Positions 3,361-47,342 of a stretch of 64,000 nucleotides of DNA are shown here, piece by piece. Position numbers and translations under genes: made by a program. The notes under the pieces were generated by a model, which did not search any database, was not told the DNA's origin, and worked only from the letters and a program-made list of their open reading frames with translations. The stretch covers positions 193,294-257,293 of the forward strand of contig NZ_QFRJ01000003.1 in NCBI RefSeq assembly GCF_003143775.1, in the 5' to 3' direction. How positions within the stretch are numbered: position 1 is the first letter of the stretch; each line of letters starts with the position of its first letter. The DNA comes from Brumimicrobium oceani. GTDB lineage: Bacteria; Bacteroidota; Bacteroidia; Flavobacteriales_D; Crocinitomicaceae.

Positions 3361-3560
3361 TATCCGATACTTTGTGATTAAGCGGTGAACTGATAAGACC
3401 CTTGGCAAGTTTCTATTTCAACAAATTGAAAAAGAAATTTATCTCAGGGTAGTATTAGGCTAAGGGCATATTTCAAGAATGGAGAAACCTTGTCAAATTA
3501 AAGAGGGAACCATTTTCTATGGTAATTTATTAAACTGCTGGTAAAGTTCACGACAAGCAT
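3361..3560 (-). repeat. MITE-like dispersed intergenic repeat, copy A (inverted)
   Basis: Read on the minus strand it starts with ATGCTTGTCGTGAACTTTAC, continues with CAGCAGTTTAATAA, an AAAATGG block and CTCTTTAATTTGACAAG, and later shares the CAATTTGTTGAAATAGAAA and CAGTTCACCGCT segments with copies C and D. The right end reads CACAAAGTATCGG, so the TTTGCTGGT part of the right terminal repeat is deleted. It is the only one of the five copies in reverse orientation. It lies between the two surface-protein genes. No coding capacity is seen. Confidence 0.75.
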
Positions 3561-3782
3561 TATTATTTATTTTGAAAAAGTTGTAAAAAAGTTCGCTTCA
3601 GCATACTAATAAGCCTGATAATCAAACGAAATAGCCTTTTTTTACTAAACTGCCAATACAATACTTGAATAGCATTTATTTGTTTTTTTAAATATTCATC
3701 TAGGAACTAAACACTCAAGCCCCCTTTGCTTTTGGGGAAGTACTCACTAAGAAACTCAGCAAAAAACAAAATGCTTGAAACC

Positions 3783-3840
3783 AAAAAACCGATTCCAAAA
3801 CTCAATCTCCTCTTAAGGAAAATCAAGTTTGGAATCGGTT
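3783..3840 (-). terminator. Rho-independent terminator downstream of the 3871-8740 gene
   Basis: A perfect 13-bp inverted repeat, AACCGATTCCAAA at 3787-3799 and its complement at 3828-3840, with a 28-nt loop. On the minus strand it is followed by a short U run (complement of AAAA at 3783-3786). It sits 30 bp after the stop codon of the upstream minus-strand gene. Confidence 0.75.
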
Positions 3841-3870
3841 ATTAAAAACTAAACGACTCTAAAATGAAGT

Positions 3871-6800
3871 CTAATTCTTTATTACGCGGTGGATGCTTTC
3901 GCTTGTTCCATCCGTAATGCGAATCATATAAACTCCTTTTTCGTAAGCAGATAAATCTACTTGCACTGAGTTATTCATGATGTTTTGTTCTGTCAACTTA
4001 CGGCCTGTTGCATCAACTACTTCTAAAGCATATTGATTAGACTCAAAATTCTCAAACTGAACTGTCACCACTCCACGGGTTGGATTCGGATATAGACTTA
4101 TTCCTAAGATTTTGTCTAAATCATTTAAGCCAACATTGTCCACTAAAATACAGTCAGAAGTATCTGTACAATTTCCTTCCGTTACAATCACTGCATAATT
4201 TCCATTAGCCAAAGCTGTGAAATCTTGATTCGTCTCTCCAGCAATTGGTGCATTTCCATTGTCACAGTCAATCCACTGATAAGTTGCCCCTACTGCATTT
4301 GCAGTTAAGACCACACCCGCAACGCTTGTTGTAACATCGACAGTATTGATGGTCAAATCTAAAGTTACGATAGAATCACATCCTACTGCATTTCCTCCTG
4401 CGATTGTGAATGTAGCTGTGTTGTTTGATGAAGTATAAGTATTTCCATCAATCCAAGTGTAGCTATCACACGCTGTTTGAACATCTGTTCCTGTTGTGGA
4501 ATTGTTGATTGTTAAATCTAAAGTGATAAGAGAGTCACAACCAAATGCTCCAGCACCAGGTATAGTATGCGTTGCTGTATTGTTTGAAGCAGTGTATGTG
4601 TTTCCATCAATCCATGTGAAAGTTTCACATGCAACTTCCGTATCCGTACCTGTTATAGGCGAAGATAAGGTTGAGAAAGTGAAAGGTCCAACGAATGTAC
4701 TTACCAAGCTACCACAATCTGCCTCAACATAATAATCATAGTCTGAACAAGGGTTTAAACCTGTCAAAGTGTAAGGGTTACTTGTTACTGTTACTTGCGT
4801 TCCTGATCCAGGAGTGAATCCTGCAGATCCATACTCAATATTCCAAGTCGTTGCTGTTCCATTTTCTGTCCAACTTAAGTCAGCAGAGTTTAGTGTAATA
4901 TTAGCAACACCTAACGCTGATGGGTCTGTACAAACAGGTGCTTCCATAACGAAGAAGTCATCTACACCTAAATCATTTTGATAATAATTAGACGAGGTTG
5001 TTCCTGTTGCAGCAATTGCATAAATTCTAAACTTTGTAGTTGTTGGAATTCCAGCTGGAAGTGTACCAGAAACTTCAACCCATGATGTAAAGTTTCCTGT
5101 TTCGGTAGTGATATTTACCCATGCACTACCATCCCACGCATCTAGCGCTATAGTGTGGTTCGTGGAATTATCTGTATTATCAGACGCAAACCAGAAACCA
5201 ACCAATGGAGTTGTCAAGCCGCTCATATCAATGAAAGGAGAAACCATTTCATTGGCTGTGATATCACCTGAGGCATCAATCCACATATAGTTACCAGTAC
5301 CAGATGTATGATCACCTAGATCTGGCAAATAAGCGTGACCTGTATTCACAACATCATCTGTTACTTCCCATAAATCTGACAGCGTTTGCGGCTCCCAACA
5401 AGTAGGTAAATCCGTGTATGGACTCGTTAATGCAAGACCATCAAAGTCCTGCATATATGGTGCAGTAATTGCAAAGCATGGCGTAAAGAATGTGGAAACC
5501 AATGACCAAGCACTGGTATCTCCCACCGTACAGATTGCTCTTACATATACCTCATAATCGGTATCATCTGTTAACGCTGTTAAAACTGCAGAATTACTTG
5601 TTTCTGTACTTCTCGTACCTGAGCCTAGAGTAAATCCTGGTGCTCCATACTCCACTTCCCACTCCATTGGTGAACCAGATTGGGTCCATGACAAATTTGC
5701 GGTAGTAGCTGAAGTCGCGTTAGCGAGCAAATTGGTTGGCGCTAAACAAGTAGGAATAGCTTCGTAGTTAAATTCATCTATTCTGATGTATTTATAAGTT
5801 CCCCCGTCTAATTCATGCGCAAGCACAATGTATTCGTCTGTTCCATTGTAACCATTTGCAGTTGTAATATCTACAATAACTTGCTGGTAGGTATCATCTG
5901 CAATAAAGGTAATGGTTTCAATTGGGTTAAATGTTGACGTAGGCGTTGGTGCAGCAATTGTACCCACAATCAGTCGTGTGGTCACATTATCTGCGTTTGC
6001 TTGGAACCTTACTCTTTTATCGCCTGCTGGTAGATCTGTAAATTGAGGTGACAAAGCAATTAGAGTATCTGTAACACTTGACGCACTATTGTATAAATAC
6101 AAAGCTTGAGAACCAGCAAAAGGTGCCGATGTTCCAGTGAAATCCTCTACTTCTACCCATGCACTGCTATATGATGCGTAAGAATCCCAACAACCTGGGG
6201 CCATGTCCAACATATCATTTTCAAATCCATTATAATAAGGAGCAGTATATGGAACACATAAAGTAGTAAAGTTTGAAGCAAAAGTCCAAGTACTTGTATC
6301 TCCAACAGCACAAATTGCTCTTACATAAACATCATAGTTTGTGTTATCGGTCAACGAACTTAAAGTTGCATTTGTTGAACTTTCTACGCTACTTGTACCT
6401 GATCCTAAAGTAAATCCAACTGGTCCATATTCGACTTCCCAAGATGTTGCTGTTCCATTTTCAGTCCATGCTAAGTCTGCTGAAGAAGAAGTAATGGCAC
6501 TAACCGCTAAATTTGAAGGAGCAACACAATTAGGAATCGTTTCATAATTAAATTCATCTATTCTAATGTATTTAAAAGTTCCTCCATCCAACTCATGAGC
6601 AAGAACAATATATTGGTCTGTTCCGTTGTAACCACTTGCTGTTGTAAACTCTACAATTACCTGCTGGTATGTATCATCCGCATTGAAGGTAACCACTTGA
6701 ATTGGATTAAATGTTGATGAAGGAGTTGGTGCAGCAATTGTACCTACTATTAATCGTGTAGTTACGTTATCTGCATTGGCTTGAAATCTAATTCTTTTAT

Positions 6801-8682
6801 CACCCGCAGATAAATCAGAAAACTGTGGTGTTATAGCAATCAAAGTGTCTGAACCTACTGTAAAGCCCGAACCACTATAGATATAAAGTGCCTGATTTCC
6901 GAGGAAAGGCGCCGCTGTTCCAGTGAAATCCTCTACTTCTACCCAACCATTAGAAATAGTAGAATAAGAATTCCAACATCCAGGTGGCGTATCTAAAGGA
7001 TCATTTTCAAAACCATTATAGTAAGGCGCTGTGAAAGCTGAACACAATGTTTTGAACGACCATGCACTAGACCATTCACTCGTGTCACCAGGCGCACAAA
7101 TTGCTCTAACATACCATTCGTAATCTGAGTACGGAGACAATCCTGTGGCATTATAATTTGTTGAATTCACAATGAATGAATTTGCCGTAGCTCCAGGTGT
7201 AACACCAGGTGCTCCTAAAGTCACTTCAAATGAAGTAGCAGATACATGGGTCCACGATAGATCTGCACTTGAGCTTGTAATATTTTGAGCTATCCCCGCA
7301 TTGGCTTTGAAGCACGAAATTGTCGACTCAACAACAAAGAAGTCATCTATACCTAAATCATTCTGATAATAATCCGAAGACGTTGTTCCCGTTGCGGCAA
7401 TAGCGCGAATTCTAAATTTTGTTGTTAAAGGAACTCCATTAGGTAAAGGACCACCCACTTCTTTCCAAGCAGGGAAATTACCTGATTCTGATGTAACATT
7501 TACCCAAGTAGAACCGTCCCAAGCATCTAAAGTGATGGTATGGTTCACATTATTGTCCACATTGTTTGAGGCAAACCAAAATCCGATATAAGGAACAGTT
7601 AGTCCAGTCATATCAATCAAAGGGGTTACCATCGCATTTTCTGTGATATCACTTGAAGCATCTATCCACATATAATTACCCGTACCAGTGGTGTGATCTC
7701 CAATGTTTGGTAGATAAGCGTGTCCTGTATTTGTTACATCATCTGTAACATCCCAAAAATCTGGTCCTACTTGAGGCTCCCAACAACTTGGCAAATCAGT
7801 ATAAGGAGAAGATAAAGCCAAGCCATCAAAGCTCTCATTGAATGGCGCAACGAATGCTGCACATGGCGTTGTGAATGTTAAGGGAGCTGAGAAATTACTG
7901 GTGTCTCCAGGAGCACAAATAGATCTCACATAAAAATCATAAGTTGTACTCGGAGCTAAAGATGACAAGACTTGACTTGTTGTAGCAGTGACATTCGATG
8001 TCCCACTTCCAGGCGTGTAACCTGTAACATCATACTCAGTAATCCAAGAAGTAGAAGTTCCATTCTCTACCCAATTGAAGGTTCCTCCTGAACCACTTGG
8101 CAATAGAGATAGACTTCCAGGTTTCGCACACGTTGAGAAGTTTTCTACTACGAAATTATCGATGTAAACATTATAATCTGTGTTACTCACCGAAGACCTT
8201 CCATAAAAACCAATCTTTACGATTCCACTGTAGGCAGATAAATCTAAAGTTACAGTTTCACCAGCGTTTGAAGGCTGATCTCCTTCGGTGTAGAGTTTTA
8301 GAATGTTAGATTTTGACCATGTTACTCCGGCATCCGTTGAAATTACGACTGCCATAGTATCATCAATACTCATTAAGTCTGTTCCAGAGCCTGAGTAATC
8401 TGTTAAACCTATATCGAATTGAATTTGATAAGCACCCGTCCCCAAATCTATCTCTGGTGACACGAGCCATTCGTCAATTGTTGTTCCATAAATATTAATT
8501 CTTGCTGATCCTGAAGAACCTGAGTTTAGAAATCCATCTGAAGTCCAGTTCGAGGTTGTAGCAGTATAAGTACTTGCATTACCTAAAACCCCCGTTGGTT
8601 TCTGTCCAGCAGGTAGGGACATAGGTGCTAAATCCCTCAAAGTAAGTCGGTGTGACCGTGCATTGAGCATTTGATTTAGCAT
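3871..8682 (-). CDS. Multidomain fn3/MAM-like T9SS-secreted protein (main frame; N-terminus displaced by frameshift)
   Basis: About 1600 residues of repeated extracellular modules. In order: a jelly-roll-like domain with YGTTIDEWLVSPEIDL; an fn3 domain; a MAM-like module (ESFDGL, YMWIDASSDIT, NDLGIDDFFVVE); an fn3 domain; two near-identical modules starting APYYNGFEND, each followed by fn3; a second MAM-like module; an fn3 domain; two WIDGN repeats; an Ig-like segment; and a C-terminal type A T9SS sorting domain (LYPNPTRGVVTV near the start, GVYMIRI near the end). It should therefore be exported by the Por/T9SS machinery and anchored to or released from the surface. The first in-frame Met at 8682 is not a natural start: the residues up to about LGNAS do not look like a signal peptide, and a proper signal peptide lies in another frame at 8740. 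See the N-terminal fragment entry. Confidence 0.85.
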   Translation of the reverse strand: MLNQMLNARSHRLTLRDLAPMSLPAGQKPTGVLGNASTYTATTSNWTSDGFLNSGSSGSARINIYGTTIDEWLVSPEIDLGTGAYQIQFDIGLTDYSGSGTDLMSIDDTMAVVISTDAGVTWSKSNILKLYTEGDQPSNAGETVTLDLSAYSGIVKIGFYGRSSVSNTDYNVYIDNFVVENFSTCAKPGSLSLLPSGSGGTFNWVENGTSTSWITEYDVTGYTPGSGTSNVTATTSQVLSSLAPSTTYDFYVRSICAPGDTSNFSAPLTFTTPCAAFVAPFNESFDGLALSSPYTDLPSCWEPQVGPDFWDVTDDVTNTGHAYLPNIGDHTTGTGNYMWIDASSDITENAMVTPLIDMTGLTVPYIGFWFASNNVDNNVNHTITLDAWDGSTWVNVTSESGNFPAWKEVGGPLPNGVPLTTKFRIRAIAATGTTSSDYYQNDLGIDDFFVVESTISCFKANAGIAQNITSSSADLSWTHVSATSFEVTLGAPGVTPGATANSFIVNSTNYNATGLSPYSDYEWYVRAICAPGDTSEWSSAWSFKTLCSAFTAPYYNGFENDPLDTPPGCWNSYSTISNGWVEVEDFTGTAAPFLGNQALYIYSGSGFTVGSDTLIAITPQFSDLSAGDKRIRFQANADNVTTRLIVGTIAAPTPSSTFNPIQVVTFNADDTYQQVIVEFTTASGYNGTDQYIVLAHELDGGTFKYIRIDEFNYETIPNCVAPSNLAVSAITSSSADLAWTENGTATSWEVEYGPVGFTLGSGTSSVESSTNATLSSLTDNTNYDVYVRAICAVGDTSTWTFASNFTTLCVPYTAPYYNGFENDMLDMAPGCWDSYASYSSAWVEVEDFTGTSAPFAGSQALYLYNSASSVTDTLIALSPQFTDLPAGDKRVRFQANADNVTTRLIVGTIAAPTPTSTFNPIETITFIADDTYQQVIVDITTANGYNGTDEYIVLAHELDGGTYKYIRIDEFNYEAIPTCLAPTNLLANATSATTANLSWTQSGSPMEWEVEYGAPGFTLGSGTRSTETSNSAVLTALTDDTDYEVYVRAICTVGDTSAWSLVSTFFTPCFAITAPYMQDFDGLALTSPYTDLPTCWEPQTLSDLWEVTDDVVNTGHAYLPDLGDHTSGTGNYMWIDASGDITANEMVSPFIDMSGLTTPLVGFWFASDNTDNSTNHTIALDAWDGSAWVNITTETGNFTSWVEVSGTLPAGIPTTTKFRIYAIAATGTTSSNYYQNDLGVDDFFVMEAPVCTDPSALGVANITLNSADLSWTENGTATTWNIEYGSAGFTPGSGTQVTVTSNPYTLTGLNPCSDYDYYVEADCGSLVSTFVGPFTFSTLSSPITGTDTEVACETFTWIDGNTYTASNNTATHTIPGAGAFGCDSLITLDLTINNSTTGTDVQTACDSYTWIDGNTYTSSNNTATFTIAGGNAVGCDSIVTLDLTINTVDVTTSVAGVVLTANAVGATYQWIDCDNGNAPIAGETNQDFTALANGNYAVIVTEGNCTDTSDCILVDNVGLNDLDKILGISLYPNPTRGVVTVQFENFESNQYALEVVDATGRKLTEQNIMNNSVQVDLSAYEKGVYMIRITDGTSESIHRVIKN

Positions 8683-8740
8683 TGGGGTTCAGAGCCAAAA
8701 GCCCTAAAAGCATTCCTGCTAAAAGTGATTTTGTTTTCAT
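8579..8740 (-). CDS. Out-of-frame N-terminal piece of the 3871-8682 gene (signal peptide)
   Basis: The ATG at 8738-8740 opens 53 codons with a clear signal peptide (MKTKSLLAGMLLGLLALNPN, then AKSNAQ) followed by YFEGF and VPTCWTETNGG, the usual opening of this type of jelly-roll domain. The frame hits TAA at 8579-8581. Dropping one base from the run of five G and four T (8585-8593 on the plus strand, as AAAACCCCC) joins TETNG directly to VLGNAS of the main frame. So the gene is really 3871-8740 with a one-base insertion: a sequencing error, a recent mutation, or a phase-variable tract. I cannot tell these apart from this sequence. Confidence 0.8.
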   Translation of the reverse strand: MKTKSLLAGMLLGLLALNPNAKSNAQCTVTPTYFEGFSTYVPTCWTETNGGFR

Positions 8741-8920
8741 AAGTTTTCTGTTAATAAATTAAATTATCGCTTTACCCATAACTTTTAAGGATAAAATTTG
8801 CTTTGTGAAATTACAAAAAAATTAAAAACCGAACAACAATCTGTTAAGAAACAAGTATCTAAACCAAAACTCCAAGAAAAAAAAATGTTTATGTGAGCAG
8901 GATCTCACTCTAAATCTAAA

Positions 8921-8957
8921 AAAAGAAAAAAGCCCCAAATGTTTTTATGGGACTTTT
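8921..8957 (-). terminator. Terminator for the response-regulator operon
   Basis: Stem AAAAGCCCCA (8928-8937) against TGGGACTTTT (8948-8957), 9 of 10 pairs, with a 10-nt loop. On the minus strand a U-rich tract follows (complement of AAAAGAAAAA and the A run before it). It lies about 220 bp past the 9177 stop. Apart from this hairpin I see nothing in the 8741-9176 gap. Confidence 0.6.
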
Positions 8958-9176
8958 GATTTTTGGCTTTGGTCATATTTTAGTCAGTACTTTTCTATAA
9001 AAAGTGTCGTCTGCTGTTGTCTGAAGTAACACAACAAATTTATATTTGAGACAAGCCAATTCTATACGTGCTACTACGTATTTTAAGATATATTTCGGAG
9101 TATCATGATCGCTGAGCTTAGACCATTAGCGATGCCTTTCAATATTCATAAGACAAAACTTAAGGATTTGATTAAG

Positions 9177-9806
9177 CTAGATCCATGTTTTATTCTCATT
9201 TACCCAAGCCAATAAGGAGATTGACTTTTCTTTTAATCCTAGCTTACTTATAATATTACTCCGATGTTTTTCAACAGTTCTAATTGAGATAAAAAGCTGT
9301 TCCCCTATCTCTTTTGTGGATAGGTTTTGCGCTATTAGTTTTAAAATTTTGCGCTCTGAAGGAGTAAGGTATTCTAACTTATTCATTTTTTTTTCAGCAT
9401 CAATTAAAGTCCTTGAGCTAAACACCTTGCTATAATATTCTTTGCCTTCTAGTATTGCTTTGAGGCAATTTTCAATTTCTGATACGGCATCCTCTTTCAA
9501 CACATATCCTGCAATATTTAGCTTTTTTGCTTTGAGTAAAAACGCTGCTTCTTGGTGATAAGATAAAATGATGAATTTGGTAAAACAATCTGGATTGGCT
9601 TCACATTTCTTGGCAATCGTAAGCCCATCCACAAATGGCATTTCTATATCCAATATTGCTATTAAAGGCTTGTGCACTATCAACAAGTCCCATGCTGCTT
9701 TACCATCATTGGCTTTTAATAAATTTGTATACCCTAGGTTTTTAAGCTGTACATACAAACCTTCTAGCAAAATTGGGTGATCGTCCGCAATAAGTATTTT
9801 CGGCAT
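9177..9806 (-). CDS. NarL/FixJ-type response regulator (LuxR HTH)
   Basis: 209 residues. The receiver domain covers 1-120 with the acidic pair D8-D9, phosphoacceptor D53 (AILDIEMPFVDG), S82 in the switch position and K104. A LuxR-type helix-turn-helix follows at about 143-208 (LTPSERKILKLIAQNLSTKE, then RTVEKHRSNIISKLGL). It should bind DNA after phosphorylation by the histidine kinase encoded just upstream: that gene's stop and this start are one base apart, so the two form an operon. The target genes are not evident; the adjacent 8740 surface gene is one possibility only because of its position. Confidence 0.93.
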   Translation of the reverse strand: MPKILIADDHPILLEGLYVQLKNLGYTNLLKANDGKAAWDLLIVHKPLIAILDIEMPFVDGLTIAKKCEANPDCFTKFIILSYHQEAAFLLKAKKLNIAGYVLKEDAVSEIENCLKAILEGKEYYSKVFSSRTLIDAEKKMNKLEYLTPSERKILKLIAQNLSTKEIGEQLFISIRTVEKHRSNIISKLGLKEKSISLLAWVNENKTWI

Positions 9807-9807
9807 T

Positions 9808-11961: not shown

Positions 11962-12098
11962 ATTGCTTATCGGAAACTTTACCACCTGTTGAATATACAA
12001 CAATAAAAGTTCTCTCTTTAACTTGGCCAGATTCTTCCATAGTCGAAAATCTTAATTTTCAACTATGGTCGGGATGACAGTTGTAGGCGCTGGGAGGC
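11962..12098 (+). repeat. MITE-like dispersed intergenic repeat, copy B
   Basis: Starts TTGCTTATCGGAAACTTTAC, then the TTCTCTCTTTAACTTG block and a hairpin: CCATAGTCGAAAAT (12037-12050) pairs with ATTTTCAACTATGG (12055-12068) in 13 of 14 positions. It ends in GGGATGACAGTTGTAGG, a tail shared with copy E. It lacks the right-hand module with the second terminal repeat found in copies C and D. It occupies about half of the 304-bp gap between the histidine kinase start and the 12152 gene. Confidence 0.75.
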
Positions 12099-12151
12099 CA
12101 TTGAGAGTATGAAGCAAAAGCGATCATATCTTTAAACCTTGAGCACCGGGA

Positions 12152-13678: not shown

Positions 13679-13878
13679 TTAGTTTACCCAAAAATAATGA
13701 AATCAAATTATAAAAGACTGATTGGGTTAATAATGAACGTTAAATCTGGATTTGAAATGGTTTTAAGAAATCCAGTTCAAATGTTTTATAGTGTATAATT
13801 TTAGCCCAATTATTCATTAATGTCCTCCCTCCCTTTTTTGGTTAAACAAAACTTCTCAATTCTTGTTTTTAAATTTAA

Positions 13879-14110
13879 ATGCTTGAACGCAACTTTACAA
13901 GCAGTTTACTAATTTAAAAGAGAAAATGGTTCTCTACTTAATTTGACTAGATTCTTCCATTGTTGAAAAGCATAATTTTCAACAGTGATCAGGAAGACAG
14001 CTGTGGAAAATTTCTTTTTCAATTTGTTGAAATAGAAATTTGCTGAGGATCTTGTCAGTTCTTAGCTGAATCACCTACTTGCTTAGATATATTTGCTGGT
14101 AAAGTATCGG
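13879..14110 (+). repeat. MITE-like dispersed intergenic repeat, copy C (most complete)
   Basis: 232 bp carrying all three modules. The left end is ATGCTTGAACGCAACTTTAC followed by AAGCAGTTTA. The middle hairpin is CATTGTTGAAAA (13958-13969) against TTTTCAACAGTG (13976-13987), fully paired with one G-T wobble. The right module has CAATTTGTTGAAATAGAAAT, GTCAGTTC and the right end TTTGCTGGTAAAGTATCGG. ACTTTAC(C/A)AGCA at the left is inverted as TGCTGGTAAAGT at the right, so the ends are terminal inverted repeats. No open frame of note. It fills half of the 13679-14131 gap. Confidence 0.8.
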
Positions 14111-18011: not shown

Positions 18012-18396
18012 AGCGCCAAAGATATGAATTCATATTAATAAGAGAAATTTGAAAGTTTAATTTTATTTACTCCACATAGAATGCACCTCCCTATTTTGTT
18101 GCAAAAAACATCGTTTTCTGGGCCTATTCCAATAAGAAATCAGTGATTTTTAGTAGCTAAGCTCTGGTCTAAACAGAAACAAAAAAGCTTTGTTGCGAAA
18201 TAAAAAAAATAGTGTACTAAACCAAAATGGACTGAAAGTATCCTAAGCTTAGATAGGAATAAAATGGGTCAGTTTCAAAAGTTGGGAATTAAGTTTTTTC
18301 TTGACTAAGAATCCCTGTATAAAAATTAGTCTTATCCTATCTTGAGTTGATCTTTTAGACTCTGTAAAAGATGAAGTGCATAAAAGGACAATACTA

Positions 18397-18426
18397 AAGC
18401 GTTCCCACAAGAAGCGTTCCCACAAG
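18397..18426. repeat. 15-bp direct tandem repeat (two copies)
   Basis: AAGCGTTCCCACAAG occurs twice head to tail at 18397-18411 and 18412-18426. The second copy overlaps the left arm of the GTTC...GAAC hairpin. Confidence 0.8.
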
Positions 18427-18466
18427 ATACAATCTTGCGAGAACACTTTGTGAAAGGGTTGAAATT

Positions 18467-18519
18467 AAAAAAGGGGGAGAATTAATGGCGCAAAGCGCCA
18501 TTAATTCTCCCCCTTTTTT
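18467..18519. terminator. Perfect 25-bp stem-loop with A6/T6 ends
   Basis: The left arm 18467-18491 (AAAAAAGGGGGAGAATTAAT, then GGCGC) pairs perfectly with 18495-18519; the loop is AAA. It is symmetrical and would work as a terminator on either strand. It lies about 335 bp past the mutS2 stop. Confidence 0.75.
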
Positions 18520-18532
18520 GAACTCACAACTT

Positions 18533-18578
18533 AAAAAAAAGTTACCTCAAGATTATATCTTGTGGTAACTTTTTTTTT
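18533..18578. terminator. Second strong stem-loop, A8/T8 ends
   Basis: 18533-18553 (A8, then GTTACCTCAAGAT) pairs with ATCTTGTGGTAAC plus the T run ending at 18578, with a single T-T mismatch. It is 13 bp from the previous stem-loop, so the two form tandem terminators on the mutS2 side. The CAAGAT/ATCTTG inner stem is also used by the third hairpin at about 18415-18443. Confidence 0.7.
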
Positions 18579-18853
18579 ATTTCTCGGTCTAATTCCACAT
18601 CGACAAGCCACAAGAAAACTTATAGCTAAATGTCGATCTTATTTCGAAATGAAGCATAAATTGAAAAAATATTGACGTGATGTTACCTGTAATTGACGTG
18701 TGGATATTAGCTGGCCATTGTTTTATAATAAAACATATCCCCACAAATTTAATGTGACCCAATAAAATCCTCTAACTGTAAAGTTCTAGACTTTGGATAT
18801 TATACCTAGGATTATGGTCTAGCACCCAAGGACTGCTAAGGCTCCTACTATAA

Positions 18854-20977
18854 CTAATTACTTACCCAAATCAACTGCTCTAGTTTTACTTTCATTCTAG
18901 CAAAACCCAATAAAACTGTTACCTCATCCCCTTTTATCTCTTCCACATCACCAGTTTGCTTCGTTGCAATGAGCTTCACTTTACTCCCAACCTTAATTTT
19001 ATCTTGTTGGTATTCGTTGACCATTTTCTTTGGCTTTCCTTTTTTCTTATTGGCCTGCTTCTTAAGTCGAATTTCTTTTTTAACTTCCTCTGTTTTCGCT
19101 TTTTCTTTTGCAATGTACTTTTTAATATCTTGCATCAGCGGTTCATTTACATTCTTCTTCTTGACACCAACTTTATAGTTGTCAATATATGATTGAAGTT
19201 TATTCCCTAGACTTACGAATTTGCTGGTTTCCTCTGCTTTATTTTGTAGAGAGGCCAATTTTCTATCGTATTTTTCCTTTGTTGTTTCGTAATATTTCCG
19301 ATGTTTATCAGCAGTTTCTTGTGCTAAAATGTGTTCTTTGGTTAAGCGACTCAAATAGGATTTTTCTTTTTGCAATTCATGAAGCAGTTGATCCATCTCT
19401 ACCTTCTTATTGTCAAGTTTGGATTTTGCCCTATTAATTAGCTTTTTCGGAATCCCATTAATTTGAGCAACTTCAAAAGTAAATGAACTTCCTGGCTGCC
19501 CCATTGAAAATTTAAACAAAGGATTCAACGTTTCCGTATCGAACAACATGCAACCATTGATAGCTTCAGGCAACTTGTCCGCTTTCAGCTTTATATTGCT
19601 GTAGTGTGTAGTGATAACTCCGTAAGATCCTTTGTCATAAAGTGTTTCAAAAAACACTTCAGCCAGCGCACCACCCAAATCAGGATCTGAACCCGTACCA
19701 AATTCGTCTAATAAAAGTAGAGCGTTTTCATTGGCTACATTTAAAAAATGACGCATTCTTTTCAAACGGTAAGAATAGGTACTGAGCTCATCTACAATGG
19801 ACTGATTATCTCCAATATCCGTTAACAGTGCATCAAAAAAGCACATTCTACTATTCGGATGCAGGGGCACTAATAAACCACATTGCAACATCAATTGTAA
19901 AAGTCCAACTGTCTTTAGGGTTATACTCTTCCCTCCTGCGTTTGGTCCAGAAATCACCAACATTCTAGAATTTTCATTCATAGAAATTCGTTGAGGAATA
20001 GTTTTCTTTCCTAAATTGTCATTGTTCATTTTCAACAAAGGGTGAAAACAATCAATTAAATCGAATGCTTTATTTTCATTTATTGCAGGTAAATTAGCGT
20101 CGAGAAGCAGCGCCAGTCTACATTTTGCATTGATAAAATCCAACTTGGTTAAAACTTGCTGATAGTCTTTTATCAGCGGAAGGAAAGCCAACATCTCATA
20201 AGTTAACTGCTGCAGAATGATGAAAATTTCTTTTCTTTCATCATCTTTAAGTTGCTCTAATTCATTATTTAAAGGAACAGTTTCTCCCGGTTCTACAAAG
20301 GTAACGTTTCCAGATTTTGAATTGCCCACTACCTGACCATTAACTTCTCTTTTGTAGGAAGACAGAACAGCTAAAACCCTTCTATCATCGAAATACCCTT
20401 CCTTCGTGTCGGCCAAATACCCTTTCTTCAAGTACTTTCGCATACTCCTGTCGAAAGTGGAATGAATATGTCTTTTTACTGAAGACATTTGCTGACGTAT
20501 TGACAAAAGATCTGATGAGGCATCGTCTTTTACCTTTCCGTGTTTGTCAAAAATAGTATCGATTTTCTCGATAATTTCTTTCGTAAATTCTACATCCGAG
20601 AGGAGTTCATACAACTGAGGGAAATCTTCTTCTCTTTTATTAAAAAAGAAAAGCAAGGAATTTACCATGACAGAAGCCATACGAATTCGGGCAAAGCTTT
20701 CTTGAGGAAGACTGGCATTTTGCACAGGCAACATCCGAATTTCATTTTGCAGTTCCTCGAATTCCAATCTTGGAAAACTTTCGCCTTCTCTACGGATTTC
20801 AACCAACTCATTGGTCTGATTAAGGAATTTCATTAACTCCTCATTGTTCTGAACAGGTTTCAACCGTTCTACGATTTTGAGCGCAGATGGGCCAACACAA
20901 TACTCGCGTAATATGTCCTGAAGCTTTCCGAGCTCTAAATCCTTATATGTTTGTGGGTCGCATTTCAACATTTGCAT
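18854..20977 (-). CDS. mutS2: MutS2-type ATPase lacking a Smr domain
   Basis: 707 residues. The N-terminal helical core region is followed by the MutS ATPase: Walker A SGPNAGGKS at about 341-349, Walker B LLLLDEFGTGSDP, and TTHYSNIK. After it comes a long charged coiled coil (about 500-655) and a small C-terminal beta domain (IKVGSKVKLIAT to KLEQLIWVSN). The Smr nuclease domain that ends typical MutS2 proteins is missing, as I recall for many Bacteroidota members. MutS2 proteins have been linked to suppressing recombination and to rescuing collided ribosomes; which applies here is open. Starts at 20977 or 20971 are both ATG. It is divergent from the 21008 gene with a 30-bp gap. Confidence 0.88.
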   Translation of the reverse strand: MQMLKCDPQTYKDLELGKLQDILREYCVGPSALKIVERLKPVQNNEELMKFLNQTNELVEIRREGESFPRLEFEELQNEIRMLPVQNASLPQESFARIRMASVMVNSLLFFFNKREEDFPQLYELLSDVEFTKEIIEKIDTIFDKHGKVKDDASSDLLSIRQQMSSVKRHIHSTFDRSMRKYLKKGYLADTKEGYFDDRRVLAVLSSYKREVNGQVVGNSKSGNVTFVEPGETVPLNNELEQLKDDERKEIFIILQQLTYEMLAFLPLIKDYQQVLTKLDFINAKCRLALLLDANLPAINENKAFDLIDCFHPLLKMNNDNLGKKTIPQRISMNENSRMLVISGPNAGGKSITLKTVGLLQLMLQCGLLVPLHPNSRMCFFDALLTDIGDNQSIVDELSTYSYRLKRMRHFLNVANENALLLLDEFGTGSDPDLGGALAEVFFETLYDKGSYGVITTHYSNIKLKADKLPEAINGCMLFDTETLNPLFKFSMGQPGSSFTFEVAQINGIPKKLINRAKSKLDNKKVEMDQLLHELQKEKSYLSRLTKEHILAQETADKHRKYYETTKEKYDRKLASLQNKAEETSKFVSLGNKLQSYIDNYKVGVKKKNVNEPLMQDIKKYIAKEKAKTEEVKKEIRLKKQANKKKGKPKKMVNEYQQDKIKVGSKVKLIATKQTGDVEEIKGDEVTVLLGFARMKVKLEQLIWVSN

Positions 20978-22459: not shown

Positions 22460-22791
22460 AGTTTAAAAATAGTTTATTGCCCTAAATAAACAGATGAGCT
22501 GCATATAAAGTTTTACAATAATACAACAAAAAAATTCAGTCCTTCAAAATATTTTTAGTTGAAATTCAGCTACTTGATTGTTTTTAAATGCGTACATAAT
22601 ATTTTTGAAAGTTAAATGCTATCATTAGAGGGCGCTAAGAAAATTAGAAGTATAAAATAAAGCTCGAAAACTTTTTTCGAAAAATGAAAAAGAAGTGAAC
22701 TTGTGACATACTTCTCATGTGTTACCGAACAACAATTATGTAAGTCCCGACTGAAAGACGAATGCAGACATTAAACATAAAATACTTGTCC

Positions 22792-22940
22792 GGAACTTTA
22801 CCAGCAGTTTAATAAACTACAATAAAAAATGGTTCTCTCTTTAATTTTCACTTTGTTGAAGTAGAAATTTGCGAAAGATTTTGTCAGTTCACCGCTGAAT
22901 CACATACTTCATTAAATCTATTTGCTGGTAGAGTATCAAA
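22792..22940 (+). repeat. MITE-like dispersed intergenic repeat, copy D
   Basis: 149 bp with both ends. Left: ATACTTGTCCGGAACTTTAC followed by CAGCAGTTTAATAAAC. Right: TTTGCTGGTAGAGTATC. It lacks the middle hairpin module: TTCTCTCTTTAATTTT joins directly to CACTTTGTTGAAGTAGAAAT. It lies in the gap 22460-23132, in which I see nothing else convincing. Confidence 0.78.
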
Positions 22941-23132
22941 TAGACATTTAAAAGATAGACCAATAGTTTTAGTGCTTGCGTTTAAGGCCTGTGACAAAAA
23001 GTTGACAAGTAAATAAAGCTGAACGCATAGTACTAGCTCCTGTTCCCAACATCCACATTTTTACTACAATTCAAAACTCCTCATCTATATACTCTCTCCT
23101 ACTTCTATTATTCTTAAATTCGCAACTCCAAA

Positions 23133-39857: not shown

Positions 39858-39859
39858 GT

Positions 39860-41263: not shown

Positions 41264-43169
41264 AATGATTGTTATTTGAAATTATTTCTAAAAACTGAAT
41301 TTCAAAATCTTTTTGTTTTGAAATAAATACACTCGAGTTTTCGCTTCCATGATTCTTCCCTAATGATTCGACACTAAAGTGATCCATTAAACCAATGCTT
41401 CTGTCATATCCCAAAAGCAAAGAGGCCACTTGAGAGAGCACAACATCAAATCCGTGAAATGCATATTTGGATGCATCTGAACCATATCTCAATCTATAAT
41501 CCGCCAAAAATTTCTTGACATCTTTCTTGTCATAGTCTAAATAATTGGAAGCCGCAAAATGAAATTCAAAACGATTTTTATAGTAACTATTTAATGCTGG
41601 TATATCCATCCAACTTTGTAGCCCCACCATATTAATGGCAGCTTTACCGTAAGTTGGACTATAATTTTTAGCAGCATTTAAAGCGTTTACAAATTTCATT
41701 ATTTGCTGCACATCACTTGAAAGACAAACAATAAAATTACTTCCATCAGTGTCTATTTGATTCATTAAGCTTCTACCAGAAGCATCTCCTACTCCAGTCA
41801 CTTTTGCCGACTTTCTTGTTGCAAACGACTGACTTTTTTCAAAAATATCTTTAAAATACTGAACCCGTTCTTTTACTTCCTCATTTTCACCTTCAATAAT
41901 GACTATATTATCCGCTCCGTGTTCTTTGGCCAGGTATTTAGCCATCGCACTAATCATTGTCAATTCCGAGGGAACCATAGAAAGTAGGTAAGGATTATTT
42001 TCCAAAAGCTTAGTTGGTATTTTGGTGACAGCGACAATAGGAACTTTATTGCTCAAACCCCACTTGGCTGCGTGCTCTAATAATTGTGGGTAAAAGGGAC
42101 CAATCACGAGGTCTAAATTACCCTTGTTATTGCTACCTAATTTTTCCTTTAACTTAATTAAATCTCCACCTGTGTCAAAAAACTCTACTTCAGCATTTAA
42201 ACCAAGCTTTTCGAGGGAATCTAGAGCCATCTGAGCGCCCATCAAAAATTCTACAGATAAATTAGTGAGTTGATTTAAAGAAGTACTTTCAGAATAGAGT
42301 CCTGACAAAGCTTTCGGATTATCTTCTAATCTCATGGGCAAAACAATTAAAACCTTGTAATCATCTTTTTTCTTCACAAGAAAGTCTGTTGTCTTTTTTA
42401 TTGTGTCTTGTTCCACCAACTCTCTCACCTCAACTTCTTTAATTCTCTCTTTCTTTAGTTTAATGGTTAAAACTTGGCCCGGTTTAATTGAGCTGCCCTG
42501 TAGATTATTTTGTTCTATTAACTCTTCCACAGGAACCATAAATCGTCTTGAAATTGAATAAAGTGTCTCTCCTTTTTGAACTTCATAATTTACAATGCTG
42601 TCTTGAAAATCAACCTTGTAATCAATAACAGTTACAGAGTCATCTTTAAATGGATTATGTGGTTCAAATCTCTGTTCTGTTTCTTTTTCTGACTTTTCGT
42701 TTTTATCAAGTGGTTTTTCTTCCTCCATCAAAATAGGTTTTCCATCTATTTTAGACAGCAATGGGATTTTCAACTCTTGCTTTATATCTAAACCTTCATC
42801 TGCTCCTGGATTTAACCGAATTATATCTGCCACCGAAACATTATAAGAACGAGAAATTCCATAAAGTGTCTCTTTTCTTTTTACGAAATGAAGCACATAC
42901 TTCTCTTGGGCAGGCTTTTGAGCAACATCCCCATTCGTTGGAATATATAGAATTTGACCTACTTTTAATCCGTCTTTTGCAGTGGGATTAGCTTTAATGA
43001 TAGATTCAATTGTGACTTCATACTTTACATGTAAACCATACAAAGTATTCCCTGCCTCTACTGCATGAACTCTATACAATTTACCGTCTTTGGTTTCTTG
43101 TCTTATTTCTTGAGATAAAACAGAAAAAGCACCTCCAAAAAATACAATTAAAGCTATTAAAATCCTCAT
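41235..43169 (-). CDS. LysM repeats fused to a periplasmic-binding-like domain
   Basis: 644 residues from the ATG at 43169, whose A is shared with the guaA stop (TAATG); an ATG three codons earlier is also open. Signal peptide [20 protein letters not shown], then three LysM domains (GNTLYGLHVKYEVTIESI; KETLYGISRSYNVSVADI; GETLYSISRRFMVPVEEL) that bind peptidoglycan, a charged linker, and a type I periplasmic-binding fold of about 370 residues (KVLIVLPMRLEDNP; LDLVIGPFYPQLLEHA; GFDVVLSQVASLLLGY). It probably sits on the cell wall in the periplasm. The ligand is unknown. Confidence 0.85.
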   Translation of the reverse strand: MRILIALIVFFGGAFSVLSQEIRQETKDGKLYRVHAVEAGNTLYGLHVKYEVTIESIIKANPTAKDGLKVGQILYIPTNGDVAQKPAQEKYVLHFVKRKETLYGISRSYNVSVADIIRLNPGADEGLDIKQELKIPLLSKIDGKPILMEEEKPLDKNEKSEKETEQRFEPHNPFKDDSVTVIDYKVDFQDSIVNYEVQKGETLYSISRRFMVPVEELIEQNNLQGSSIKPGQVLTIKLKKERIKEVEVRELVEQDTIKKTTDFLVKKKDDYKVLIVLPMRLEDNPKALSGLYSESTSLNQLTNLSVEFLMGAQMALDSLEKLGLNAEVEFFDTGGDLIKLKEKLGSNNKGNLDLVIGPFYPQLLEHAAKWGLSNKVPIVAVTKIPTKLLENNPYLLSMVPSELTMISAMAKYLAKEHGADNIVIIEGENEEVKERVQYFKDIFEKSQSFATRKSAKVTGVGDASGRSLMNQIDTDGSNFIVCLSSDVQQIMKFVNALNAAKNYSPTYGKAAINMVGLQSWMDIPALNSYYKNRFEFHFAASNYLDYDKKDVKKFLADYRLRYGSDASKYAFHGFDVVLSQVASLLLGYDRSIGLMDHFSVESLGKNHGSENSSVFISKQKDFEIQFLEIISNNNHFDVNQRRGN

Positions 43170-44701
43170 TATTCCCATTCTATTGTTGCAGGTGGCTTGG
43201 AGCTAATATCGTAAGTTACACGATTAATTCCTTTCACTTGATTAATTATTTTATTCGATATTTTACCTAAAACTTCATAAGGCAAATGACACCAATCTGC
43301 AGTCATTCCATCTGTTGAAGTCACGGCACGCAATGCCACTGCATTTTCGTAAGTTCTTTCATCGCCCATTACACCAACAGTGTTCACAGGTAAGAAAATT
43401 GCACCCGCTTGCCAAACCTCATCGTACAAGCCAGCAGCTTTTAATTCTCCGATAAATACAGCATCTACCTCTTGAAGAATCGCAACCGTTTCTGGAGTTA
43501 CTTCTCCTAAAATTCTAATCCCCAAACCTGGACCAGGGAAAGGGTGTCTTCCCAAAATAGCCGGAGAAATTCCTAAAGACTTCCCTACACGTCTTACCTC
43601 ATCTTTAAATAAAGATTTTAAAGGCTCAACGACTTTTAATTTCATATAATCTGGTAATCCACCAACATTATGGTGAGATTTTATGGTTTGTGAAGGTCCT
43701 CCAGTAACACTTACAGATTCAATTACATCGGGGTAAATTGTACCTTGACCTAGCCATTTTGCGTTTTCTACTAATTTTGATTCTTCATCAAAAACATCTA
43801 CAAACACCTTACCAATTGCTTTTCTTTTTTCTTCTGGATCTGTTAACCCTTTCAAGGCAGAATAAAACTTTTCAGATGCATCAACACCTTTCACGTTAAG
43901 CCCCATTCCCTTGTAGCTTTCTAAAACTTCTGTGTATTCGTTTTTACGTAACAATCCGTTATTCACGAAAATACAGTGTAAGTTCGAACCAATTGCATGA
44001 TGTAATAAAGTTGCCGCTACAGAGGAATCCACTCCTCCAGACAATCCTAAAATCACTCTATCGTCTCCAAGTTGTTCTTTTAAAGCATCAACTGTAGATT
44101 CCACAAAAGCATCAGGCGTCCAATCTTGTTTACACTCTGCAATTCCAACCACAAAATTATAGATCATCGTTCCACCATCCGTTGAATGATAAACTTCTGG
44201 GTGAAATTGAATTCCATAAGTTTTTTCTCCTTGAACCGCGTAGGCAGCATTTTTTACATCTGCTGTACTTGCAATTACATCAAAATCTGATGGTAAAGTC
44301 TTAATAGAATCTGCATGCGACATCCAAACTTGTGACTGTTCTGCAATTCCTGCTAAAAGACTACTTTCGTGATCATGGGAAACAATATTTGCTCTTCCAT
44401 ACTCTCGCGTATCAGAAGCAGCCACTTCTCCACCAAAATTGTGCGCCATATATTGTGCACCAAAGCAAACTCCTAAAAGTGGAACTTTACCTTTAATTTT
44501 TGATAAATCGATTTTCGGCGCTTTCTCGTCTCTTACAGAAAAAGGACTTCCTGAAAGAATTACACCTTTAATATTACTTGTGATTTCTGGGCATTTATCC
44601 CAAGGGTGAATCTCACTATAAACATTCAGCTCTCTTACTCTTCTCGCTATAAGTTGCGTATATTGAGAACCAAAATCCAAAATTAAAATCGTGTCTTGCA
44701 T
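43169..44701 (-). CDS. guaA: GMP synthase (glutamine-hydrolysing)
   Basis: 510 residues. Class I glutamine amidotransferase domain with the nucleophile in [10 protein letters not shown] (C79) and catalytic His-Glu in [10 protein letters not shown], then an ATP pyrophosphatase domain with the P-loop [11 protein letters not shown] and the C-terminal dimerisation domain ending [14 protein letters not shown]. It makes GMP from XMP. It heads an operon with the LysM gene and hemF, each overlapping the next. Confidence 0.97.
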
Positions 44702-45104
44702 GGCGCAAAGATAATAAACCCTTCATTCGACACCTAAGTAATTTTTAATTTTTAACGACTAAAAATCTAAAAGTCGAATGAATAGTGATTATGACTTTAA
44801 AAGCCTATCCAATACTCTACCAATAAATATGTCTTATCAATTAATTAGTCTTTGAAAGAAAACTCCAAATATTCGTCAATAGGACGGACAGGTCGATGTT
44901 ATGCTTACCTCGGCTGGCTCGCATCGGACAAGCTTACTTCGTCAGACTATGCATATCTCAGCGCAACGTTGCACAGGTGTTTTGAATTGCAGGAGTCCAG
45001 AAGTTTACAGTCGGGACTCCTGACAATTAAAAACTTCTCAAGCCTTTTCTATAGAATTTTCTTATCAATAACTTGAAAAAGCCTAGTTTTCTTGCGAACA
45101 CAAC
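44702..45104. other. 403-bp gap with a G+C-richer patch and an inverted repeat
   Basis: About 44880-45022 is visibly richer in G and C than the surroundings. It holds a perfect 9-bp inverted repeat, CAGGAGTCC (44990-44998) and GGACTCCTG (45014-45022), without a T run on either side. The segment CAGTCGGGACT here reappears inverted as AGTCCCGACTG just before repeat copy D (about 22743). The small frame at 44852-45076 has no ATG start and no protein-like features. Origin unknown. Confidence 0.4.
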
Positions 45105-46061
45105 CTATCGGATAATTTGATTGGTTTTCAAGGACTCCACAGTATTCTTCATTATACGTTCTTCTATATTTGAGGTATCCGCTTGAACGAAGCCTTTTCC
45201 TGTAATTTTTTCAAAAAGCTCTATGTATCTTTCTGTAACCAAAGAAATGAAATCTTCTGGAATAATTGGCATTTTCTGACCTTCCAAACCTTGGAAATCA
45301 TTTTCAATTAACCATTGACGGACAAATTCCTTACTTAATTGACGTTGTTGTTCTTTATTCGCTTGTCTTTCTGCGTAACCTTCTGCGTAGAAATAACGTG
45401 AAGAATCTGGTGTATGAATTTCGTCCATCAGCATTACTTTTCCATCTTTCATACCGAATTCATACTTTGTATCCACCAAGATTAAGCCTCTTTCAGCGGC
45501 CATTTCTGTTCCTCTTTGATACAATGCATGAGTATACTTTTCTAGCTGACTGTAAATTTCTTCTGTTGCATAACCTTGCTTCAACAATTCTTCACGTGAA
45601 ATATCTTCATCATGTCCCTCAACTGCTTTTGTAGATGGAGTAATAATTGGAGAAGGAAATTTATCGTTTTCATTCATTCCATCTGGCATTTCAACGCCAC
45701 ATAAAACTCTTTTTCCAGCGCTGTATTCTCTCCAAGCGTGTCCTGTTAAATATCCACGAATCACCATTTCAATACGAATTGGATCACAACGGTAACCCAC
45801 AGCCACATTTGGATCTGGAACATCAATTAACCAGTTGGGTAAAATATCTTCAGTAGCTTTCAAAAAATGAGTTGCCACTTGATTTAAAACTTGACCTTTG
45901 AAAGGAATTCCTGCAGGTAAAATATGATCGAAAGCAGAAATTCTATCTGATGCAATCATCACTAAGTGGTCATCACCAATAAAGTAGACATCTCTTACCT
46001 TCCCTTTATAGACTTCCTTTTGTTCAGGGAAATTGAAATCAGTTTTTGTTAGACTCTTCAT
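45105..46061 (-). CDS. purC: SAICAR synthase
   Basis: 318 residues. Typical opening ([20 protein letters not shown]), [25 protein letters not shown] and [20 protein letters not shown] followed by [10 protein letters not shown]. It ligates aspartate to CAIR in purine synthesis, using ATP. Its length is that of the longer, fungal-like PurC type found in Bacteroidota. The start overlaps the end of phoH by 23 bases, so the two are co-transcribed. Confidence 0.96.
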
Positions 46062-47004
46062 ATTGCTTTTTTTCTTTATCGAAAGCTTCGATAATTTGTT
46101 TTACTATTCTGTGACGAATAACATCATTTTTATTTAATCGAACCACGCCGATTCCTTCAATTTCGCTTAAAGTATCTAAGGCAAATATTAAACCCGACTT
46201 TTGCTTTGAAGGCAAATCAATTTGCGAAGCATCTCCTGTAATCACGAAGCTAGCGGTCATCCCCATTCGGGTTAAGAACATTTTCATTTGATTGACCGTT
46301 GTATTTTGTGCTTCATCTAAAATCACAAAAGCCTTGTCTAGTGTTCGTCCACGCATAAATGCCAATGGAGCAATTTCTATGACACCAAGTTCCAAATAAT
46401 CAATCAATTTTTCGGCAGGAATCATATCGCGCAAAGCATCGTACAAAGGCATCATGTAAGGGTCTAATTTATCCTTCATGTCTCCAGGTAAAAAACCAAG
46501 ACTTTCACCCGCTTCCACAGCAGGGCGCGTTAAAATAATACGTTTAACTTGCTTGTTTTTTAAGGCTCTCACAGCGCATGCCACGGCGGTATATGTTTTT
46601 CCTGTTCCCGCTGGTCCAACGGCAAAAACCATATCATTTTGGTTAATGGCTTCCACAAGTTTTCTTTGATTGAAAGTTCTTGCTTTTATTTTATTTCCAC
46701 CAACACCGTGAATTATGATTTCTGAACCATCACCCGACAACATTTCAACTGGATCTTCCACCATAACGTTGTCGATATTATTTTCTGTTAGCCCACCATA
46801 CTTGGCAATATGTTGTATCAGTTGATTGACTTTGGCTTCAAAACTTTCTACAACAGCTTCGTCGCCTTCTATTGTAAGCGTGTTTCCTCGAGCCACAATT
46901 TTTAAATCTGAAAAGTACTTTTTAATCAGCTTCAGTTTTGAATTATTAACTCCTAGCAATTCTAAAGGATTAATATCTTCAATTTCAATTTTTCGTTCTA
47001 GCAA
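46039..47004 (-). CDS. phoH: PhoH-like ATPase
   Basis: 321 residues. An N-terminal KH-like region ([20 protein letters not shown]) is followed by the P-loop GPAGTGKTY (130-138), [28 protein letters not shown] and [10 protein letters not shown]. PhoH proteins are ATPases tied to RNA processing or ribosome maturation; the exact role is not settled. The only usable start is TTG at 47004: an in-frame TAA lies four codons upstream and the first internal Met is near residue 81. It forms an operon with purC. Confidence 0.92.
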
Positions 47005-47028
47005 TATTTTACGGTTTTAATCTGCATC

Positions 47029-47062
47029 CAAAATTAATGAATTTTTAATGTTTTGAAACAAA
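47029..47062 (-). promoter_or_regulatory. Promoter of phoH-purC
   Basis: On the minus strand: TTTG (complement of 47059-47062) and TAATTTTG (complement of 47029-47036), spacing 22. The TTG start codon is about 25 bases further on. Confidence 0.65.
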
Positions 47063-47194
47063 AAAAGACACAGAAAGACAAAAGTTAGTAATTCCAAGAT
47101 TGTTGGTTTAATAAGTTCGTAAAAAGGGCTTCAAAACATCAACTACCCTCTTGACTAAAAGCCAAATATCAGCATGGTATAGATTTGATTTTAA

Positions 47195-47342
47195 ATGCTT
47201 GTCGGGAACTTTACCAGTTGTTTAATAAATTGCAATAGAAAATGGTTTTCTTTTAAGTTTGACAAAATCCTTCCATAGCTTAAAATCATAATTTTCAACA
47301 ATGATCAGGATGACAGTTGTGGGAGTTAGTGGGCAAACGAGA
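47195..47342 (+). repeat. MITE-like dispersed intergenic repeat, copy E
   Basis: Starts ATGCTTGTCGGGAACTTTAC, then CAGTTGTTTAATAAATTGCA, the AAAATGG block, and a hairpin region (CATAGCTTAAAAT...ATTTTCAACAATG) that has lost several pairs. It ends in ATCAGGATGACAGTTGTGGG and a short tail resembling that of copy B. It lacks the right terminal repeat. It lies in the 47005-47493 gap, in which nothing else is evident apart from the phoH promoter. Confidence 0.75.

What the first reader, a model, noticed from the sequence alone, without database searches (positions are those of the whole stretch)
3361..47342. A family of five dispersed MITE-like repeats with inverted ends
Copies A (3361-3560, inverted), B (11962-12098), C (13879-14110), D (22792-22940) and E (47195-47342) share a left end ATGCTTGTCGGGAACTTTAC-like followed by CAGCAG, then an AAAATGG and TCTCTTTAATTTGAC block. 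C and D also carry the matching right end TTTGCTGGTAAAGTATC, so ACTTTACCAGCA is a terminal inverted repeat. All copies are in gaps between genes, none has coding capacity, and there is no parent transposase in the window. I do not know of a described element with this sequence. Five copies in 64 kb would suggest a high copy number genome-wide.
Basis: seen in the sequence. Interest (0 to 1): 0.8.

Follow-up and report, generated by a model that had tools for sequence, protein, structure and literature searches.

The report
IS1595-driven MITE family in Brumimicrobium
The repeats are real: they are short non-coding jumping elements, scattered through one marine bacterium's genome, whose ends match those of a known kind of bacterial transposon (IS1595), and their middle folds into a conserved three-armed hairpin.

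Summary
The five window repeats are deleted or half copies of a ~343 bp element with a 26-bp terminal inverted repeat (TIR), AATGCYTRTCSGRWACTTTACCAGYA. The host is a Brumimicrobium by kinship. Its fetched stretches hold 74 element intervals. The TIR pattern hits 107 times there, against 0 for the backwards control. Of 42 two-ended copies, 29 keep an 8-bp target duplication at 7/8 or better, 18 of them perfect. Copy C is absent from the orthologous gap in two congeners. A likely parent lies in a congener: L153:1450-2502 is a 1.05-kb IS1595-family IS with matching TIRs. The host assembly shows only one cousin IS1595, with a related TIR (17 of 26 bases) and a perfect 8-bp duplication. The body is a three-armed hairpin core with compensatory changes, also kept in a B. 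salinarum copy. Its apex looks like a bidirectional terminator in this species, but that copy lacks the T-tract and gene orientation gives no significant support. New member of a known kind (an IS1595-linked MITE); the covarying core is the interesting part.

The parts
3355..3561 (-). Copy A: both ends recognisable, apex hairpin and part of the right TIR deleted (model 1-91 and 189-330); outer right limit judged by eye
11962..12124 (+). Copy B: left half only (model 2-168), broken inside the central palindrome
13878..14110 (+). Copy C: left end to model 130 plus 226-335; outermost bases of the right TIR lost; absent from the orthologous gap in G003 and G002
22781..22948 (+). Copy D: two-ended internal-deletion copy (model 3-66 and 239-343)
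47194..47353 (+). Copy E: left half only (model 2-161), broken inside the central palindrome

Best explanation
The repeats are one MITE family. It is a ~343-bp non-autonomous DNA transposon with 26-bp TIRs, mobilised in trans by an IS1595-family DDE transposase that recognises those TIRs and inserts into AT-rich 8-bp targets (rough consensus TAAATTTA) in intergenic DNA. Shown: the TIRs at both ends, the 8-bp target duplication, many dispersed copies, a congeneric gap without copy C, very similar copies at different loci (up to 97.7%), and an IS1595 IS with matching TIRs in a congener. Inferred: that this IS type is the mobiliser, because no transposition was observed and the host assembly shows only a cousin with a partly matching TIR. 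The internal sequence forms three palindromic arms on a closing stem. Copies then decay by internal deletion and by loss of one half, with many breaks in the central palindrome. The window's five copies are such decayed forms.
For: TIR pattern, up to 3 mismatches: 107 hits in the host, 0 for the backwards control there (that control gave 1 hit each in G004 and G060). Hits occur in 7 of 10 genomes of the genus (host, G001-G005, G009; none in G006-G008) and in none of the 4 other-family genomes. An exact scan of the 84,980-species collection found 7 stretches, 6 titled Brumimicrobium and one a MAG contig of the same length as G009:C8; the tool may leave out the host's own and very near records. 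TSD: mean identity 0.82 in the 8-bp frame against 0.50 for left and right flanks of different copies; identity is 0.81-0.86 at each of the eight positions and near control at the next base on either side (0.55 against 0.50, 0.38 against 0.37). IS1595 members are usually flanked by 8-bp TSDs (PMC8101967, passages read). Parent: L153:1450-2502 carries a 315-aa transposase, NF033547 (IS1595 family) 165.4 bits against cut-off 75 and PF12762 61.8 against 27, with TIRs at 0 and 1 mismatches from the degenerate MITE pattern, and 22 and 21 of 26 bases in common with the plain MITE left end. The host cousin L174:1418-2425 has a 299-aa ORF, 41% identical, with TIRs sharing 17 of 26 bases with the MITE left end and AAACTTAA on both sides. 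Empty site: in G003 and G002 the same two genes are 80 and 84 bp apart in the aligned stretches where the host has 365 and 403 bp, and the right flank aligns from the base after the element or the next. The closest of 153 pairs of 18 long copies is 97.7% identical. 0 of 74 intervals overlap a called ORF longer than 600 bp (crude caller, shorter ORFs ignored).
Against: No IS with the matching TIR was found in the host: one search paired only 100 of the 107 TIR places, and the assembly is in 35 contigs. The IS with the matching TIR lies in a genome (G009) with only 3 TIR hits and no body match. By eye the MITE shares only the TIR with that IS, so an origin by internal deletion of it is not shown. 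The duplication at that IS is imperfect (6/8, my reading). 13 of the 42 two-ended copies have 6/8 or less. The left flank of copy C is too diverged to show a base-exact empty junction; G004 lacks copy C too but has an unrelated repeat array in the gap, and the stretches of G001, G005, G006 and G008 did not resolve it. Copies B and D had no syntenic flanks to compare, and A and E were not tried.
Confidence: 0.92

Rival explanations
1. The core is a selected functional RNA or terminator (a domesticated, spreading bidirectional intrinsic terminator or processed RNA), and the transposon ends are only its vehicle.
For: A full copy folds at -142.5 kcal/mol against -75.4 for shuffles, z -11.75. Over 18 copies, 97.5% of cells pair, with 55 both-side changes against 17.9 for shuffled letters and at most 15 for slid partners. 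The three arms are kept in a B. salinarum copy although the apex sequence differs. In most of the aligned host copies the apex reads A-tract, GC hairpin, T-tract on both strands.
Against: The B. salinarum copy keeps the palindrome but not the T-tract. Only 23 of 74 intervals keep the apex. Those are not significantly enriched between convergent genes: 10 of 23 against 13 of 50, Fisher p 0.18, one contig-end interval left out. The consensus terminator scan of one full copy found 0. Rfam at gathering score: 0 in the window, and in nine loci, eight of them with long copies, only a tRNA beside the B. salinarum copy. The number of further pair types equals the shuffled mean (38 against 37.3). Perfect palindromes can also be kept by template switching between arms, without selection on RNA (recalled).
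Confidence: 0.25
2. The repeats are moved by a transposase of another family with 9-12 bp duplications (IS4- or ISAs1-like; duplication lengths recalled).
Against: Identity is well above control at eight positions and near control at the next base on either side. The only complete IS found with these ends is IS1595.
Confidence: 0.03
3. An old, immobile interspersed repeat spread by recombination only.
For: The window copies are decayed; the median pairwise identity of 18 long copies is 82.4%.
Against: 18 of 42 perfect 8-bp duplications, a 97.7% identical pair at unrelated loci, a congeneric gap without copy C.
Confidence: 0.02

Closest known systems
MITE linked to ISHwa6 (IS1595 family) in Haloquadratum walsbyi, table row in PMC3852290 (one passage read)
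   Same: Non-autonomous element attributed to IS1595: 165 bp, 7 copies, IR 25, DR 8
   Different: An archaeon; half the length; far fewer copies; the passage read says nothing of a multi-arm core
IS1595 family of insertion sequences (PMC8101967, passages read)
   Same: 8-bp TSD; the matching IS has the PF12762 DDE domain and an N-terminal C2C2 motif
   Different: The MITE has no gene and by eye shares only the TIR with the IS; the TIR begins AATGC, whereas the eukaryotic Merlin relatives are said to begin with GG
QMITE2 of Coxiella burnetii (PMC10969869, passages read)
   Same: DR of 7-9 bp, TIR of 23-29 bp, whole-element stem-loop fold; the review says MITEs typically lie in AT-rich intergenic DNA and give stable stem-loop transcripts
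   Different: No sequence relation claimed; here the three-arm core shows compensatory changes in two species
Correia/NEMIS of Neisseria (PMC2229807, one passage read)
   Same: Small mobile repeat with stem-loop transcripts, there proposed to be cut by RNase III
   Different: Shorter (155 bp in the passage); no sequence relation claimed
SPRITE, S. [quoted passage not shown]
   Same: Chromosomal repeat with a terminator-like sequence; the review calls terminators formed by MITEs conceivable
   Different: Here the hairpin sits in the middle of a TIR/TSD-bounded MITE and its T-tract is missing in the B. salinarum copy

Membership tests
MITE | Short (under ~600 bp), no coding capacity | tested here: met
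   179-347 bp for 41 of 42 two-ended copies; the 42nd is 749 bp because a ~400-bp element is nested in it. Coding capacity was judged by length and by the absence of ORFs over 600 bp across the intervals
MITE | Terminal inverted repeats | tested here: met
   26-bp TIR at both ends; 107 hits in the host against 0 for the backwards control
MITE | Target-site duplication of fixed length | tested here: met
   8 bp; 18 of 42 perfect, 29 of 42 at 7/8 or better, control identity 0.50
MITE | Many dispersed copies, mostly intergenic | tested here: met
   74 intervals, 0 overlapping a called ORF over 600 bp
MITE | Empty orthologous sites | tested here: met
   copy C absent from the gap in G003 and G002, base-exact only on the right side; B and D not comparable, A and E not tried
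MITE | Transposition in trans demonstrated | not testable with these tools
   needs a transposition assay
IS1595-derived or IS1595-mobilised | 8-bp TSD | tested here: met
   family habit from PMC8101967
IS1595-derived or IS1595-mobilised | TIR shared with an IS encoding an IS1595 transposase | tested here: met
   L153:1450-2502, TIRs at 0 and 1 mismatches from the degenerate pattern; NF033547 165.4 bits
IS1595-derived or IS1595-mobilised | N-terminal zinc ribbon and DDE domain in that transposase | tested here: met
   C31-C34-C51-C54, D134 and D226 invariant in three aligned transposases, PF12762; which residues are catalytic is recalled, not tested
IS1595-derived or IS1595-mobilised | Matching IS present in the same genome | tested here: not met
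   one IS1595 transposase found in the host, with a related but different TIR; the assembly is in 35 contigs
IS1595-derived or IS1595-mobilised | Internal sequence derived from the IS by deletion | tested here: inconclusive
   by eye only the TIR is shared with the G009 IS; no formal alignment was run and no IS with the exact TIR is known in the host
Intrinsic terminator | GC-rich hairpin followed by a U-tract, kept across relatives | tested here: inconclusive
   visible in host copies, T-tract missing in the B. salinarum copy, consensus scan of one copy 0, orientation test p 0.18
Known Rfam RNA | Match at gathering score | tested here: not met
   0 in the window; 0 in the elements of nine further loci

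The most novel reading that the evidence does not exclude
The three-armed core is itself a selected device: a mobile structured RNA, or a single-stranded DNA or cruciform substrate, that the element or the host uses for more than transposon ends. In this species it acts as a bidirectional terminator dropped between genes. The element's main decay route is breakage at the palindrome tip, which leaves reproducible half-elements.
Probability: 0.22. Interest if true: 0.55.

Novelty: new member of a known kind. Interest (0 to 1): 0.36.

Why it matters
It gives this genus an annotated MITE family with a plausible mobiliser and explains many intergenic repeats in the host. The compensatory changes inside a MITE body, kept in two species while the apex sequence changes, give a testable case of selection (or template-switch repair) on the part of a MITE that is not its ends. 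Half-elements broken in the palindrome suggest a decay route that can be tested.

Tried and rejected
Exact 24-base inner left-end pattern in genome contigs: 0 hits; replaced by the degenerate TIR pattern. Search for an IS-sized TIR pair in the host: among the 100 of 107 own TIR places copied from the listing, the 29 pairs found are 177-345 bp and 42 places stayed unpaired; no autonomous copy was seen. The TIR at the start of contig C6 was followed as a possible IS cut by a contig end; it reads as a truncated MITE copy. Plasmid and phage collections: no match. Terminator by gene orientation: not significant. PDB relatives of the transposase: 0 up to E 0.01. Ends of window copies A, C and D were inspected for duplications and none is clean (by eye). 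Copies B and D were tried for empty sites, but their flanks are not syntenic in the congeners.

Rows dropped: the 42 two-ended copies are 42 of 54 rows. Six dropped rows were second left ends of the same element and six were chance pairs (the 258-bp row of L114 and the rows of 1.2-1.8 kb in L122, L123, L135, L144, L145). The window's own two-ended copies were not in that count. The 18 copies of A3 were picked by hand for long coverage of the model; other copies of 283-345 bp (among them L084, L086, L089, L094, L099 with its inverted interior, L106, L107, L111, L130, L134) were not put in, so the pair counts rest on a chosen set. A4 uses 11 of those 18 plus one B. salinarum copy. The half-element check used 18 of the 29 one-ended intervals, chosen because they break at model 150-190. 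In relatives the DNA search scored only 7 candidates a genome, so weak body matches there may be missed.
Full report
What was checked. The five repeats are in the sequence at the stated places and score far above chance with a profile built from 9 copies outside the window. The window is G000:C23:193294-257293 of a 3.85-Mb genome in 35 contigs. The host itself is unnamed. The named records that share the TIR are Brumimicrobium glaciale, B. salinarum and B. aurantiacum plus an uncultured Flavobacteriales MAG.

Anatomy. Full-length copies elsewhere in the genome are about 343 bp (e.g. L088, L093, L110). They begin AATGCTTGTCGGGAACTTTACCAGCA and end TTTACTGGTAAAGTATCGGATAGGCATT, so the TIR is about 26 bp. 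The window's copies are a deleted A, half copies B and E, and internally deleted C and D. Profile search of the fetched stretches gave 74 element intervals. These came from regions chosen by TIR or BLAST hits, and a few intervals are pieces of one element (for example the two sides of a nested insertion at C32:185441-186187), so 74 is a rough count of pieces. Four further two-ended elements share the TIR but got no profile hit (L089, L092, L104, L111; 272-316 bp), as do G004 elements with an unrelated-looking interior (L160, L162, L163). One TIR thus serves several interiors.

Mobility. In the frame of an AATGC...GCATT element, left and right flanks agree at eight positions (0.81-0.86 each) and fall near control level at the next base on either side. 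Mean 8-bp identity is 0.82 against 0.50 for flanks of different copies; 18 of 42 are perfect, 29 of 42 are at 7/8 or better and 13 are at 6/8 or less. The target is AT-rich, roughly TAAATTTA. Copy C lies between two genes whose aligned stretches in G003 and G002 are 80 and 84 bp apart, against 365 and 403 bp in the host; homology to the right resumes at the base after the element or the next. The left flank is too diverged for a base-exact junction; G004 lacks copy C too but has an unrelated repeat array there. The closest pair of 18 long copies is 97.7% identical, the median 82.4%. TIR counts run 107 (host), 37 (G005), 13 (G004), 10 (G003), 6 (G002), 3 (G001), 3 (G009) and 0 in G006, G007, G008. 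DNA hits to the body itself appear mainly in the host, G003 and G005; hits in G001 and G002 are TIR-length, and G004 adds one 63-bp internal match (7 candidates scored a genome). Two weak short matches (E 4.1e-5 and 7.6e-5, in G043 and G051) were the only ones in the 89 genomes outside the genus.

The mobiliser. The one complete IS found with the matching TIR is in the G009 MAG (L153:1450-2502). It is 1053 bp with a 315-aa transposase of the IS1595 family (NF033547 165.4 bits; PF12762 61.8 bits), TIRs at 0 and 1 mismatches from the degenerate pattern and an imperfect duplication (6/8, my reading). Eight-base duplications are usual for IS1595 (PMC8101967, passages). The host's one PF12762 hit sits in a 1.0-kb IS with TIR TATGCTTCCCCGCAATGTTACCACTA, 17 of 26 bases shared with the MITE left end, and a perfect AAACTTAA duplication. 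Its transposase is 41% identical to the G009 one. Whether it accepts the MITE's ends is unknown. By eye the MITE shares nothing with either IS beyond the ends, so I call it IS1595-mobilised and leave IS1595-derived open.

The core. One full copy folds as RNA at -142.5 kcal/mol against -75.4 (sd 5.7) for shuffles. The TIRs pair with each other; inside, a closing stem carries three arms. On 18 hand-picked copies RNAalifold predicts the same closing stem and arms. 97.5% of cells pair (shuffled 93.7%); there are 55 both-side changes against 17.9 with shuffled partners and at most 15 with slid partners; but the count of further pair types (38) equals the shuffled mean (37.3), 12 pairs with both-side changes were reached by 6 of 500 shuffles, and the closing stem has no both-side change. 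With 11 of these copies plus one B. salinarum copy, 18 of 80 predicted pairs have both-side changes; that copy keeps the three arms with a different apex. In host copies the apex is A-tract, GC hairpin, T-tract on both strands, the look of a bidirectional terminator. But the B. salinarum copy lacks the T-tract, only 23 of 74 host intervals keep the apex, the consensus scanner reported none in one full copy (its stem rule may absorb the tract), and apex-keeping copies are not significantly more often between convergent genes (10 of 23 against 13 of 50, p 0.18). Rfam finds no family in the window or in the elements of nine other loci. I therefore hold palindrome conservation as shown, RNA or terminator function as possible, and template-switch repair of palindromes as an equally open cause.

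Decay. By profile, 29 of 74 intervals have only one end; two of these are the sides of the nested copy and one lies at a contig end. 18 of the 29 break at model 150-190 of 344, in the central palindrome. Of those 18, three still carry the other end or its last bases with a matching duplication (C35:101251, C1:321375, C32:23254), one may (C12:543101), and the other 14 show none. L099 has its inner part inverted (seen in the alignment). Cleavage or slippage at the hairpin tip is the likely cause (inference).

Known or new. An IS1595-linked MITE is in print: a 165-bp, 7-copy element in Haloquadratum walsbyi with IR 25 and DR 8 (PMC3852290, passage). Folding MITEs and terminator-like repeats are in print too (PMC10969869, passages; PMC2229807, passage). 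The searches I ran for this genus and for Flavobacterium found no description (listings and abstract starts only; the library is open-access PMC). Verdict: a new member of a known kind, with a covarying core.

Noticed in passing
A ~400-bp relative is nested in a copy of the first family (L148, C32) with duplication GAAATATG. Parts of it match several places in G004.
   Followed up: partly
window about 18043-18864: G003 and G004 lack the ~810 bp that the host has here; the flanking matches abut in them (in G003 with an 8-base overlap), so the region around the GGGTCA element is an insertion or a fast-changing stretch.
   Followed up: no
window 56880-57580: Array of ~52-bp repeats rich in TTTCGC/TTACGCGGAG/AAGAAGAAAAG. 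A similar-looking array lies in the intergenic gap of G004:C8 (L225) where the host carries copy C.
   Followed up: no
window 1-3067 and 4224-4658: Units spaced 153-159 bp, 62-80% alike, suggesting a repetitive (surface-type) protein gene next to copy A (the protein was not looked at).
   Followed up: no
window 61221-61520 and 62562-62861: Stretches 98% identical at 1341-bp spacing, which looks like a recent tandem duplication.
   Followed up: no
L160, L162, L163 (G004): ~285-309-bp elements with the same TIR but a different interior, so one TIR is shared by different MITE bodies.
   Followed up: partly
L153, L174, L175, L183, L186: The inner TIR motif TACCA recurs near the ends of IS1595 genes of several genomes whose outer TIR differs (by eye).
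   Followed up: no
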